64,000 bases of DNA from Daucus carota subsp. sativus (taxonomy: Eukaryota > Streptophyta > Magnoliopsida > Apiales > Apiaceae), in NCBI RefSeq assembly GCF_001625215.2, contig NC_030389.2:39793454-39857453 (forward strand). The letters run 5' to 3'. The notes under the pieces were generated by a model, which was not told where the DNA came from, did not search any database, and saw only the letters and a program-made list of their open reading frames with translations. Made by a program: the position numbers and the translations under genes. Of this stretch, positions 49,360-58,363 are shown one piece after another. Numbering within the stretch: position 1 is the first letter of the stretch; the number at the start of each line of letters is the position of its first letter.

Positions 49360-49500
49360 GTGCCGCGTACGATACACGCTCCCTCCCTAGCGAGTCAGCG
49401 TTTGACTTATGGAGTGGTAGGTGATCACAGTTGGTCAATTATATACAAAACAGGGCAGGCAGTGAGCAGTCGCTGCTATTCGTTGAACTTAATCTCTCTC
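49360..49500 (+). promoter_or_regulatory. Cu/Zn-SOD promoter region
   Basis: A TATA-like ATTATATACAA lies at about 49438-49448. A GTAC core, the motif bound by the copper regulator SPL7, occurs once at 49367-49370. One tetramer is weak evidence by itself. Confidence 0.35.
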
Positions 49501-49533: not shown

Positions 49534-50370
49534 AAGGGGTTCCCTGAGGTAATACAAATCTCTCTGATCATAATTTTTCTGTTGATTCAACTCGATGTTT
49601 ATATGTGTGCGTGTCTATGATTAAGCTTGTTGTTTAAGCTGATTGTTATGTTTTGGTATTGAATTTTAATTTATTTATTTTTTAGTTGATTGTTAAAGCT
49701 TATTTGTAATTGTAGATCTAAATTGATCCCGATAAAAGCGTAGAAATGAAGTGAAATGATGAGATTATGTGCGTTTTTTTCATTAAGAATGGTGTTAATT
49801 TGCTTTGATCTTGTTTCATAATTGTGTGTGTAAGGATTTATTAAGTCATAATCTGTGTGTTTGCTGATGATTCTGGTATTCATGTATACGCTCTCGATGA
49901 ATTTATATTTGATTTAGCTCATTCACGAGCCTTGTTTAGATTTTTCGGTCATATCGAGTATTTAGCTTATTTCCAGAGTTGATTTAATTTGTATATTTGA
50001 ATTGATCTCGATGATAATGTAGAGCCTGTGTTCCCTTTTCTTTTATGTAGATTGTTTTTTGTTGAGTATAGACGTCTTTTCATAAGTTTGTGTATTCGTA
50101 TATGATGAGTTTATATGATTGGCATAGGAGTGAGCTTTTGACTTTGAATTGTTATATAGAATCTTTGAAAAATTGTTATGCATTTCTTCTATACAGAACC
50201 ACTTTAAATTAATAGTGTCAACACTTAAAAACTATTAATTAGAGATTATATTTTTAAAGCAGGTACGTGCTAGGGTATTATTTAACATATATTAATTTGT
50301 CCGAAGAATGAAAGTTCAGTGTTATGCAATGATTTACTAAGATAACGTTGTAATGTATGCTTAGATCACA
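49534..50370 (+). promoter_or_regulatory. miR398 target site split by the SOD leader intron
   Basis: The leader exon ends AAGGGGTTCCCTGAG (49534-49548) just before a gtaata donor. The next exon starts ATCACA (50365-50370) after CTTAG and the start codon is at 50378. Joined, these 15 + 6 bases form a 21-base site that, from memory of the family, differs by one base from the Arabidopsis CSD1 miR398 site, at a position that is already unpaired there. The intron (49549-50364) separates bases opposite miRNA positions 1-6 from those opposite 7-21. miR398 represses CSD mRNA under copper shortage. Confidence 0.9.
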
Positions 50371-50377
50371 TATAACA

Positions 50378-52095
50378 ATGGCGAAGGGTGTTGCAGTTCT
50401 TAGCAGCAGTGCTGGAGTCAGTGGCACCATTTACTTCACTCAGGAAGGAGATGGTAAATTAAGTTGTTTTTTGTTTATGGTTTTACTTTGTACACTACTC
50501 ATAGTTGTTTAAACTTTCGTCTTTTTGTTCCTCAGGTCCGACTACAGTTACTGGAAACGTTTCTGGTCTTGCACCCGGACCTCATGGTTTCCATGTCCAT
50601 GCACTTGGTGATACAACAAACGGATGCATGTCAACTGGTAATTGTCACTATTCATATTTTTATATGTTGTACCTTTATCGTTTTGTTCAATTAAATCAGG
50701 CAAAATGAAATTAGATAGAATTCTATTCTTGTTGCTATGTATTATTATTTTAAGATTTCTGTATTTGGTCATGTTAATCTGTAGGACCCCACTACAACCC
50801 TGCTGGTAAAGAGCATGGAGCCCCTGAAGATGAGAACCGTCATGCTGGTGACCTTGGGAATGTGACAGTTGGTGAAGATGGTAAGTATATGCCATCACTG
50901 ATTGCTTAGTTATCACTTTTAGTTGCATCTTACTCAGTTGTATACTTATATTTACCATTTCCTTTTCTATTGAAGATGAGCTTCCTCTTCTTTTTTTTTT
51001 AATAAAAAATTGTTGTTCTTTGAGTGTTCACTGACCTTCACATCATAATAATGTCTTCTTCTCTTTTTTGTGAAAATACAGGTACTGCCAGTTTCACCAT
51101 TGTTGACAAGCAGGTACTGGTTCTTAGTCTGATTGTATGCATTTTGTATTTACCAATGGTTTGCCCAGATTTCTCAAATTCTTTTCTGTTGCAGATTCCT
51201 CTTACTGGATCAGGCTCCATCATTGGAAGGGCAGTTGTCGTCCATGCTGACCCCGATGACTTGGGAAAGGGTAAGAACCATATGTTTTGCAGCCTCTGCT
51301 CTTCTGTTTTCACATTCACTTGGATTATATCTGATATGACCATCTTGATATGATGATCTTATTATTTTCAACTACAAGAATCACTATTCATATACTATCT
51401 GCGATTGATCATCTCCATATTCTAGTCTCTGGTGCAGAAGTCTATTGATTATGATTTTAAATGTTCAATGACCTAAAAGTATTAAACATTCAAGGTGTGA
51501 TGCCCTTGGGACAGGACAACTTTGCACATACCTAATTATGGTTTTTGTGCTATTTAGTGAACTTATGGATATGTCACAACTTTATTTCTGAATATATTGA
51601 TGCATGCCCCAGTTCTACTTCGCAATATATACTTACTGGCTGAATATTAAGCTATGTGTTTGTAATTTACTTGGTTTGTGATTCATATGAACACACTGAT
51701 TTGTCAAGGGCAGTACTCTTAAAAAAAGATTTTTTAAGATGCTGATTGTTTTCATATTTTGACTGTTATAGGTGGTCATGAACTCAGCAAAAGCACTGGA
51801 AATGCTGGTGGAAGGGTTGCCTGCGGTAAGTCTCTAATAAGAAAAGCCCAAATTTGAAACGTCAACTACATATTGATCTCCTAGAATCTTTGTGATGAGA
51901 AATGAATGGTCATTGATGCCTTGTTGGCTTTCTTCACCACATGAAATCCAAGGGTCTCAAGTGGTTAATATCAATATCAGCATATCAATTTACCAAGTTG
52001 CATAACATTAGGATTATAGCACCTTATTTCTGCATGCCGATACTTATTCAATATGGGTATTCCTTGCCACAGGTATAATTGGTCTGCAAGGTTGA
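50378..52095 (+). CDS. CSD1: Cytosolic Cu/Zn superoxide dismutase
   Basis: Seven coding exons 50378-50453, 50536-50637, 50785-50880, 51082-51113, 51195-51270, 51772-51825 and 52073-52095 give 152 residues, the standard length without transit peptide. It starts [16 protein letters not shown] and ends CGIIGLQG. Copper ligands in [10 protein letters not shown] and HAGDLGN plus the later His in [11 protein letters not shown]; zinc ligands in the loop [19 protein letters not shown]; the disulfide pair is the Cys of NGCMSTG and of RVACG; the active-site Arg is in GGRVACG. It dismutates superoxide to H2O2 and O2. The cytosolic identity follows from the lack of a targeting sequence and the miR398 site in the leader. 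The last exon carries only the final seven codons and stop. Confidence 0.97.
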
Positions 52096-56300: not shown

Positions 56301-58363
56301 ATTCTCTGCGAATATACTAGTATAGGATAGACGATGAGACTTGAGACATATGACAAGGCCAAAAGGTTCAGAACTTTAGATTCCTCTCTTGACTTGGTAG
56401 TGAGCTGGATAAACCTTTGTTATGCTTGCCATCTTTTGCTGCCTTTCGTTTCGTGACATACTAATCCATCAATCATGAAGCTTGATGCACCCACAAAGGC
56501 ATCATGCCATCATCTACAACATCTTCCTCCAATTTTCCGAGAACCAAATGTTATTTTCGTAGAAGATAAATGGCCGAACTCATTTTTATTATCAATGGAA
56601 CACAGTTCACTTTGATGGCAACAAATGCCTTCCTGAGCACCCAGATGTTCGATATTAGGCTAAATATTTTTCACTGACTTAATAATGTACTCGGAGAGTT
56701 TTCGTGCAAATTTCTTTTTATTTTTGATTTAATAAAATAATACTGGTGATCAAAATACAAAGCAATTGAAATTATCATTTTGGTTTGGCGTATGAATTAT
56801 AAACACTTGCACTTATAATGACAGTAGCTCCACCTACGCTCTATATATGTCTAATTCTATGATACAGTTCCTAAATTTGGCTAACTTGCTTGTGTCCCAA
56901 TTTCACTTATTTTGCAACTTTAGTTTACTAGGTGATTAATTTCTTGGTACCAAATAAATCATGTTTTCAACTTGTGTATGGAGGATTACATGAAAAATGT
57001 TTATATGCAGTTGTACTATTCCTCACAAGGAGTCTGCAGTAAAGTGCTGCGACGAGGTGGATTCAGTTGCCAAGGTGATTGATTATATCATTTCTACATA
57101 TGCTTGTTTATGGGTTAAGTTTTGTTTCTGTTATTTATACCTTTAGGACTTCTATAAAAATACCCCTTTTTTTGAATTTTTTAATATATCACAGTCGATA
57201 GGAGCTGTTAATTGCATTGTGAGGAGAAACAATGGGAAGTTATTTGGTTGCAATACAGATTATGTTGGTGCAATTTCTGCAATAGAGGATGGGCTGAGAG
57301 GTCTCTTTTATGCTTCACTAGCCGCACAGCCCGATTATACTTGAAAGTACACTCATACTGCACACGGTTTATGCTCTCAGGTTCACACCTTACAGATAGT
57401 GCAGCTGGGTCACCCTTGGCTGGTAAACTTTTTGTAGTCATTGGTGCTGGCGGTGCTGGAAAGGCACTTGCATATGGTGCCAAGGAGAAGGGAGCAAGGG
57501 TTGTGATTGCCAACCGTACTTATGGTTAGATTCTTAGTTACTAGACTTGTGCAAGTCGATTGTGTAGCTCCTTGATGTTTGCTAAAATAAGTGTAACTCC
57601 TTGATGAGTATACAATGTTTTCTTATTTGTAAGTATTTTGAACTTCTCTCAATATATTTCTACAAGATCGAGCAAGAGAACTTGCTGATACAGTTGGAGG
57701 ACAGGCTTTGTCTCTTTCCGACTTAAATAGTTTCTGCCCTGAGGATGATATGGTTCTTGCTAATACAACCTCTATTGGGATGCAACCAAAGATCGATGAA
57801 TCACCCATTTCTAAGGTTTGGATACTGTAATTTCCTTTTTATAGCATATTTTTATGATTGAATTATTTGGCCTTTTAATTATCTTAGATACTGTAAAGGT
57901 CTTGATGTTATCATGTTACCTGGCTGTAAATAAGTAGAGTTGCTCAACCCTTGAAGGTTTATTGCATCTAGTTTCTTTAGATCTCATTTACCATGTGAAA
58001 TTTCGTTTTCATAATTAAACCAAATTCGCATTGTTTGAGTTGTAGACGTTTACAATAGATGTAAGTAGGTCTTTGTTTCTGCAGGAAGCTCTGAAATCAT
58101 ACAAATTGGTTTTTGATGCGGTTTATACCCCCAAAATCACCAGACTACTGAAGGAAGCCGATGAATGTGGAGCAAAAATTGTTACCGGGGTTGAAATGTT
58201 CATTGGTCAGGCTTACGAACAATACGAGAGGTTTACAGGGTTACCCGGTAAGTTTATTGAGCACATCTAAGAAGTCACCTGATATTACTTAATCTCACAT
58301 TACTCCATTCCTCCAATTGCAGTACCAAAGGAATTATTTAGACACATCATGGCTACATATTGA
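53336..58363 (+). CDS. Bifunctional 3-dehydroquinate dehydratase / shikimate dehydrogenase without transit peptide
   Basis: Eleven exons: 53336-53353, 53761-53996, 54296-54401, 54833-55051, 55481-55827, 57011-57074, 57195-57300, 57381-57524, 57667-57815, 58085-58247, 58323-58363; 530 residues. Residues about 20-240 are type I dehydroquinate dehydratase (EVRLDSL, TYRPRWEGGQYDGDE, SSHNY with the catalytic His, DIVKIAT with the Schiff-base Lys, MGERGLISR). The rest is shikimate dehydrogenase (GHSKSP substrate serines, CTIPHKE catalytic Lys, NTDYVGA, and GAGGAGKA with NRT for NADP). It converts dehydroquinate to shikimate. Keeping SKSP and CTIPHK points to shikimate rather than quinate use. No plastid transit peptide: exon 1 encodes only MELDQL and an in-frame TGA lies at 53282-53284. 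It may be a cytosolic isoform, or use an upstream alternative exon. Confidence 0.95.
53374..53667. repeat. Three tandem units of about 100 bp in shikimate gene intron 1
   Basis: Units begin CACGTTAAAA(C/T)TGTTCTC at 53374, 53482 and 53582; each continues with TTCTTAAATTATGCTTCTAATC-like sequence, then GCGGTTGCAGTATTAACATAAT. The third is shortened. It lies 20 bases after the donor of the first intron. Confidence 0.9.

What the first reader, a model, noticed from the sequence alone, without database searches (positions are those of the whole stretch)
49534..50370. miR398 target site created only by splicing of the SOD leader intron
The 21-base site is 15 bases at the end of the leader exon plus 6 bases at the start of the next exon, separated by an 816-bp intron. 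The part opposite the miRNA seed is cut between positions 6 and 7, so unspliced or leader-intron-retaining RNA has no complete site. Alternative leader splicing could therefore switch copper/miR398 control of this SOD on or off. The site is clear in the sequence; the switching idea is inference. Whether this split is shared by other plants I cannot check here.
Basis: partly seen in the sequence, partly recalled or inferred. Interest (0 to 1): 0.8.

Follow-up and report, generated by a model that had tools for sequence, protein, structure and literature searches.

The report
Spliced miR398 site in plant SOD
In this plant's copper/zinc superoxide dismutase gene, the landing site for the copper-linked microRNA miR398 is cut in two by a leader intron and becomes whole only after splicing; a sister gene shows the same split, so it looks like an old feature of the gene and not a proven switch.

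Summary
AAGGGGTTCCCTGAG (49534-49548) and ATCACA (50365-50370) flank a GT-AG intron of 816 nt and join into a miR398 site that ends 7 nt before the ATG (50378) of a 152-aa cytosolic-type Cu/Zn-SOD. The spliced site has penalty 5 against miR398a, the unspliced one 9: weakened, not erased. No contiguous copy was found in the genome, which holds two MIR398 hairpins.

New here: a sister gene (dS about 0.4) has the same split at the same miRNA position, although the two introns align at no higher identity than shuffled sequence. A third, older SOD gene has a leader intron in the same place but no site. In print, a maize SOD-4A transcript carries CCUGAG-AUCACA, and banana and rice cytosolic CSD genes have leader introns. 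So the split is probably an old consequence of an intron running through the target site.

The switch remains inference. The intron holds 24 ATGs, so a retaining mRNA should be translated poorly, and the one rice leader variant was nearly undetectable. Banana CSD1B does make a leader-retaining mRNA, so the idea is testable. Verdict: a true, probably conserved, under-described detail of a known regulation; no evidence for switching.

The parts
49440..49446 (+). TATA-like element (TATATAC) upstream of the leader exon; promoter inferred
   Evidence: read; neighbouring GGTAGGTGATCAC and TTGGTCAA blocks are also present upstream of the sister gene L012
49462..49548 (+). leader (non-coding) exon, CT-rich; 5' end approximate, no transcription-start data
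   Evidence: no ATG in its last 79 nt
49534..49548 (+). 5' part of the miR398 site (pairs with miRNA positions 21-7)
49549..50364 (+). leader intron, 816 nt, GTAATA...GCTTAG, 24 ATGs
   Evidence: sister intron of 811 nt at the same place in L012
50365..50370 (+). 3' part of the miR398 site (ATCACA, pairs with miRNA positions 6-1 except position 5)
50378..52095 (+). coding region of a cytosolic-type Cu/Zn-SOD, 7 coding exons, 152 aa
   Evidence: (gene model), Pfam Sod_Cu E 3.3e-52

Best explanation
This is the miR398 target site of a cytosolic-type Cu/Zn superoxide dismutase (CSD1), interrupted by an old leader intron. Transcription starts upstream of the leader exon; the 816-nt intron is removed as a matter of routine; splicing joins CTGAG to ATCACA and completes the site, which ends 7 nt before the start codon; miR398 (raised when copper is short) then slices or represses the mature mRNA. 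Pre-mRNA is only a poor target. The split is a by-product of an ancient intron position that runs through the site, kept because both exon halves are under selection. Shown: sequence, coordinates, pairing, coding gene, two MIR398 hairpins, the same split in a sister gene. Inferred: use of this junction in RNA, slicing, copper response, constitutive splicing, selection.
For: Exact site, intron and 152-aa SOD frame. Leader-junction pairing 0 of 100,000 shuffles. Sister gene L012 (leader intron C1:35018514-35019324, 811 nt): CGGGGGTGCTCTGAG|ATCACA, same miRNA position, 150 of 152 residues identical, dS 0.415; the last 11 of 21 site bases identical although the leader introns align at 66.6% identity, inside the 63.4-68.8% of 20 shuffles. 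Two MIR398 loci, fold z -7.6 and -6.0; the miR398b type has 9 GTAC motifs within 342 nt upstream of the hairpin. Maize SOD-4A transcript, predicted site CGGGGGUCGCCUGAGAUCACA (PMC4510349, passage). Banana MaCSD1B, 1C and 1D have 5'-UTR introns (PMC4615540, passage); rice OsCSD4 has 7 exons, 7 introns and UTRs at both ends (PMC9191229, passage). In Arabidopsis the miR398 sites of CSD1 and CCS1 lie in 5'-UTRs (PMC4005643, passage).
Against: No RNA-seq, degradome or annotation of this gene could be read. By a small profile from 18 coding introns of three genes the predicted acceptor is weak: rank 31 of 42 AGs in the leader, with higher-scoring candidates upstream; the sister acceptor ranks 14 of 42 and that of L016 18 of 31. 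The miR398b type, the one with the copper-type promoter motifs, pairs worse with this copy (6.5). The miR398a locus L001 matched no Rfam family at gathering scores (L017 was not scanned). That maize, rice or banana introns cut the site at the same base was not seen in genomic DNA; the banana paper names a miR398 site in MaCSD2A, none in MaCSD1A, and the passages read say nothing on MaCSD1B-1D.
Confidence: 0.82

Rival explanations
1. Regulated switch: leader splicing is changed by stress or tissue, so that intron-retaining or alternative-acceptor SOD mRNAs escape miR398 while the protein is still made.
For: Of 42 possible acceptors in the leader only the predicted one gives penalty 5 or less against miR398a (3 give 7 or less, itself included). 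Weak acceptors in all three cytosolic-type genes. Banana MaCSD1B mRNA with retained 5'-UTR intron sequence (PMC4615540). Rice CSD3-SV3, an exon-skipping variant, lacks its miR398 site (PMC8068833).
Against: 24 ATGs in this intron and 15 in the sister's should block translation of retaining mRNA. Rice OsCSD1: no alternative splicing found; OsCSD4-SV2 too scarce to measure. No expression data for this species.
Confidence: 0.08
2. Passive licensing: the split has no isoform role but keeps miR398 from acting on unspliced nuclear RNA, so that slicing is confined to finished mRNA, and this benefit has helped keep the intron in place.
For: Retained penalty 9 against 5 spliced, sister 11.5 against 6.5; same split position in both genes despite diverged introns.
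Against: A neutral ancient intron explains the same facts. L016 keeps what looks like the intron without having a site, so the intron needs no such benefit to persist. The copper-chaperone-like gene L015 has a contiguous site.
Confidence: 0.12
3. The gene model is wrong: the SOD mRNA starts inside the intron or uses another acceptor, and the split site is not made in most transcripts.
For: Predicted acceptor ranks 31 of 42 by the small profile; stronger candidates at 49686, 50216, 50051 and 50263.
Against: The sister gene gives the same join at the homologous place, the joined pairing is far beyond chance, and the maize transcript reads CCUGAGAUCACA across the equivalent place.
Confidence: 0.06

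Closest known systems
miR398 - CSD1 regulation (Arabidopsis and other plants)
   Same: Cytosolic-type Cu/Zn-SOD gene, 5'-UTR site, pairing open at positions 5, 13 and 14 as in the Arabidopsis site (recalled sequence); 5'-UTR location stated in PMC4005643 (passage)
   Different: Here the site is shown to be interrupted by the leader intron; the papers opened do not mention this
Alternative splicing that adds or removes plant miRNA sites (grape survey, PMC4108029, passages; an Arabidopsis analysis cited there as ref. 48)
   Same: Presence of a site depends on splicing; 139 grape genes had a site missing from one or more isoforms, many in 5'-UTRs
   Different: There the sites come and go with isoforms; here no second isoform is known and the site straddles the junction itself
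Rice SOD splice variants (PMC8068833, passages)
   Same: A Cu/Zn-SOD splice variant (CSD3-SV3) lacks the miR398 site, and OsCSD4 has a 5'-UTR variant
   Different: CSD3-SV3 loses the site by exon skipping; nothing is said there about a site split by the leader intron
Banana MaCSD1B leader-retaining mRNA (PMC4615540, passages and section 21)
   Same: Cytosolic CSD1 gene with a 5'-UTR intron whose retention leaves the ORF intact
   Different: No link to miR398 is drawn in the passages read

Membership tests
miR398 targets of the CSD1 class | gene encodes a cytosolic-type Cu/Zn-SOD | tested here: met
   152-aa frame, Sod_Cu E 3.3e-52 over 133 of 133 positions, no N-terminal extension; cytosolic location itself not tested
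miR398 targets of the CSD1 class | 5'-UTR site complementary to miR398 with pairing across positions 10-11 | tested here: met
   penalty 5 against miR398a, positions 6-12 all paired; 0 of 100,000 shuffles
miR398 targets of the CSD1 class | miR398 encoded in the same genome | tested here: met
   two loci with hairpin folds, z -7.6 and -6.0; expression not tested
miR398 targets of the CSD1 class | slicing of the mRNA opposite miRNA positions 10-11 and repression when copper is short | not testable with these tools
   needs degradome, 5'-RACE or expression data
junction-spanning (splice-dependent) miRNA sites | neither exon, nor exon plus intron, holds the full site | tested here: met
   retained penalty 9, acceptor-side 13.5, spliced 5; no contiguous copy in the genome with up to one mismatch
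junction-spanning (splice-dependent) miRNA sites | the junction is used in RNA | not testable with these tools
   indirect only: same join in the sister gene, maize transcript sequence
miRNA sites switched by alternative splicing | isoforms with and without the site both accumulate and differ in miRNA response | not testable with these tools
   no RNA data for this species; precedents in banana and rice from papers
miRNA sites switched by alternative splicing | split conserved in homologous genes | tested here: inconclusive
   met in 1 sister gene (L012), not in the older L016, which has a leader intron but no site; other plants not readable here

The most novel reading that the evidence does not exclude
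The split is an angiosperm-wide, selectively kept device. Because the site exists only after leader splicing, miR398 is licensed to act only on finished mRNA, and leader splice variants (cloned in banana CSD1B, predicted in rice CSD4) are a natural pool of miR398-immune SOD mRNA for copper shortage or heat. A bolder extension: if MIR398 arose by inverted duplication of its target, the parent must have been spliced CSD1 RNA, since the genomic site is interrupted; miR398 5p strands printed for blueberry (one of three), Ammopiptanthus, strawberry and raspberry, and an identical small RNA of longan, carry the same CUGAGAUCACA as the CSD1 site, including the U that does not pair, although the two hairpins of this genome do not.
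Probability: 0.1. Interest if true: 0.65.

Novelty: new member of a known kind. Interest (0 to 1): 0.35.

Why it matters
miR398-CSD1 is a well-known copper and oxidative-stress circuit, and the papers I opened treat the site as a plain 5'-UTR sequence. If it exists only across a junction, three things follow: target prediction on genomic DNA or on exons one by one will miss or under-score it; genomic reporter or editing constructs that drop the leader intron or shift the junction may change miR398 control; and leader splice isoforms in existing RNA-seq can be sorted directly into miR398-sensitive and miR398-resistant classes.

Tried and rejected
Contiguous site elsewhere: in the window the best contiguous match to miR398a is 6.5, on the minus strand at about 57370-57390, and nothing else reaches 7.5; in the genome the core pattern with up to one mismatch gave only the complement of the MIR398a hairpin, while the backward-read control gave 2 (that tool scores only its best candidates). 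Retrocopy: rejected, the gene has six coding introns and an intact frame. Rfam at gathering scores gave nothing for the window or for L001; L017 was not scanned. Sites in the other SOD-domain genes against miR398a: L013 10.5 contiguous, L014 10.5 contiguous and one split match of 6.0 at a place I read as lying inside a coding intron and took as chance, L015 6.0 contiguous and one split match of 6.0, L016 10.0 contiguous and 14-15 at its leader junction; L012 also has an unrelated-looking split match of 5.5 that starts inside its leader intron. In the window a second split partner for the same leader donor (acceptor 50811, inside coding exon 3) gives 5.5 against miR398a. A scan of prokaryote contigs for stray plant DNA kept the best 80 of 166 relatives, all bacterial by title, not used. 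Printed statements that the CSD1 site spans a junction: none seen in ten paper searches; I opened 15 papers, passages only apart from one whole section, so this does not show absence from the literature. PMC5429560 (cotton) places its predicted miR398 sites in coding regions; PMC4924269 held none of the words sought. Of 20 papers holding the junction sequence I opened 7: one is an SOD target (maize), five print a miR398 5p strand or an identical small RNA, one a precursor primer.

Species: 441 Mb in 11 contigs fits carrot, nine chromosomes and two organelles; this is recalled and untested. The names chloroplast type (L013), CSD3-like (L014) and copper-chaperone-like (L015) are my reading of the sequences, not the result of a family test.

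Full report
What is there. At 50378-52095 the window encodes a cytosolic-type Cu/Zn superoxide dismutase in seven coding exons, 152 residues, with six GT-AG introns and a full Sod_Cu match (E 3.3e-52). Upstream lies a CT-rich leader exon behind a TATA-like TATATAC at 49440. It ends in AAGGGGTTCCCTGAG at 49548. The next exon begins at 50365 with ATCACA, 13 nt before the ATG; the site ends 7 nt before it. Between the two lies an intron of 816 nt. Joined, they read AAGGGGTTCCCTGAGATCACA, which pairs with miR398a at all positions except 5, 13 and 14 (penalty 5: mismatch 1, wobble 0.5, doubled at positions 2-13). If the intron is kept, its first six bases replace ATCACA and the penalty rises to 9: four mismatches and two wobbles. 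So unspliced RNA has a much weaker site, not none.

Is it chance? Among all GT...AG pairs of 60-1500 nt in the window this is the only split site of penalty 5 or less on the + strand, and there are none on the - strand; 10 shuffles (+ strand) gave 2, 0, 1, 0, 0, 0, 0, 1, 0, 0. A split match somewhere in 64 kb is therefore not remarkable. One at the leader junction of the very gene that miR398 is known to target is: 0 of 100,000 shuffles of the leader-exon end and exon-2 leader reached 5, and 11 reached 6.5. A core pattern of the joined site occurs in the 441-Mb genome, with up to one mismatch, only as the complement of the miR398a gene (0 forward, 1 reverse; backward control 2).

The microRNA is there. 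Two loci carry mature miR398: a miR398a type (UGUGUUCUCAGGUCACCCCUU, C8) and a miR398b type (UGUGUUCUCAGGUCGCCCCUG, C1). Both fold far better than shuffles (z -7.6 and -6.0, none of 200 shuffles as good in either), though L001 matched no Rfam family at gathering scores. The b type has 11 GTAC motifs in 1411 upstream bases against 4.4 expected, nine of them within 342 nt of the hairpin; the a type has 1 against 4.6. GTAC is the core of the copper-response element bound by SPL7 (recalled); in Arabidopsis SPL7 activates MIR398b and MIR398c (PMC4005643, passage). By this sign the b-type gene is the copper-responsive one, and it pairs less well with the window copy (6.5) than miR398a does (5); with the sister copy it pairs slightly better (6.0 against 6.5).

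The split is not unique. A domain search gave 10 Sod_Cu exon matches that I group into six gene places; I fetched the five outside the window. The nearest relative, L012, has 150 of 152 residues identical, dS 0.415. It has a leader intron of 811 nt at the homologous place, and its joined ends read CGGGGGTGCTCTGAGATCACA directly before ATG: the same split between miRNA positions 6 and 7, penalty 6.5 against miR398a and 6.0 against the b type, 11.5 and 11.0 if retained. The two leader introns align at 66.6% identity over 721 columns, inside the 63.4-68.8% of 20 shuffles (alignment scores were not compared), while the last 11 bases of the site, which span the junction, are identical and the whole site matches at 17 of 21 (by eye). 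Part of that is the splice signal itself. A third gene, L016 (111 of 152 residues identical, dS 1.6 to the window copy), has what looks like the same leader intron (CCTTGAG|GTACTC ... TTGTAG|AAAAATGG, 532 nt) but no site (penalty 14-15). By inspection I saw no leader intron just before the ATG in L013 (chloroplast type by its N-terminus) or L014 (CSD3-like); the leader of L015 (copper-chaperone-like) was not examined, but it has a contiguous site of penalty 6. So the leader intron appears older than the gain or loss of the site within this group.

Beyond this genome. No plant genome other than the window's own could be searched. From papers: the maize SOD-4A transcript has CGGGGGUCGCCUGAGAUCACA as its predicted miR398 site (PMC4510349, passage), 18 of 21 identical to L012 and 17 of 21 to the window copy (by eye). 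Banana MaCSD1B and MaCSD1D have one 5'-UTR intron and MaCSD1C two; a MaCSD1B mRNA that retains 5'-UTR intron sequence was cloned (PMC4615540, passages and section 21; 5'-UTRs of 134, 82 and 79 nt). That paper names a miR398 site in MaCSD2A and none in MaCSD1A; the passages read do not say whether MaCSD1B has one. In rice OsCSD4 is described with 7 exons, 7 introns and UTRs at both ends, and the OsCSD1 coding region starts in 'exon 4' behind a partly transcribed non-coding 'exon 3' (PMC9191229, passages); the OsCSD1 miR398 site is in the 5'-UTR (PMC8068833, passage). These facts fit a split shared by monocots and eudicots, but I saw the genomic junction of none of them.

How it works, and the switch. 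Most likely the intron is simply removed and miR398 acts on the mature mRNA. A switch needs leader variants that are stable, exported and translated. Against: the window intron contains 24 ATGs and the sister intron 15, so a retaining mRNA should be translated poorly; rice OsCSD1 was not found to be alternatively spliced, and OsCSD4-SV2, which differs in its 5'-UTR, was too scarce to measure (PMC8068833). For: banana CSD1B makes a leader variant; a rice CSD3 variant (SV3) lacks its miR398 site; by a crude profile from only 18 coding introns the leader acceptors are weak in all three genes (rank 31 of 42, 14 of 42, 18 of 31); and of 42 possible acceptors in the window leader only the predicted one gives penalty 5 or less against miR398a (3 give 7 or less, itself included), so another choice would lose or weaken the site. 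The weak acceptor also counts against the gene model itself. A milder reading is passive licensing: miR398 cannot well engage unspliced RNA. Exon-junction complexes sit about 20-24 nt upstream of junctions (recalled), just 5' of this site, so they would not cover it (inference).

Novelty. miR398 control of CSD1 through a 5'-UTR site is established (PMC4005643), and so is the idea that splicing adds or removes miRNA sites: in grape, 139 genes had a site missing from some isoform (PMC4108029, passages), and in rice a Cu/Zn-SOD variant lacks its miR398 site (PMC8068833). I saw no printed statement in ten searches that the CSD1 site is split by the leader intron, but several key papers are not held (Sunkar 2006 among them), and gene models in public databases would show it to anyone who looked. 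I file it as a new member of a known kind and rate it modestly.

Noticed in passing
50263 (AAAGCAG|GTACGTG): Inside the leader intron an acceptor-like AG directly abuts a donor-like GT; it scores among the best acceptors and ties for best donor there, like a recursive splice site. Chance is likely in an AT-rich intron.
   Followed up: partly
L017:1-1411 and L001:1-1411: The miR398b-type gene has a dense GTAC cluster upstream (11 against 4.4 expected), the miR398a type nearly none (1 against 4.6), the pattern expected if only one is copper-responsive.
   Followed up: partly
window 49534-49548 and L012 leader exon: The two sister sites match different miR398 3' ends: AAGGGG fits miR398a (CCCCUU), CGGGG fits miR398b (CCCCUG); a possible division of labour between duplicated SODs and duplicated miRNAs.
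   Followed up: partly
L016:3661-4192: A third, older SOD gene has a leader intron in the homologous place but no miR398 site.
   Followed up: partly
miR398 5p strands in papers: Printed miR398 5p strands of several plants share CUGAGAUCACA with the CSD1 site, including the base that does not pair with miR398; the two hairpins here read GAGAACAC instead.
   Followed up: partly
49417-49437 and L012 upstream region: A promoter block (GGTAGGTGATCAC..TTGGTCAA) is shared by the two sister genes although surrounding sequence has diverged.
   Followed up: no
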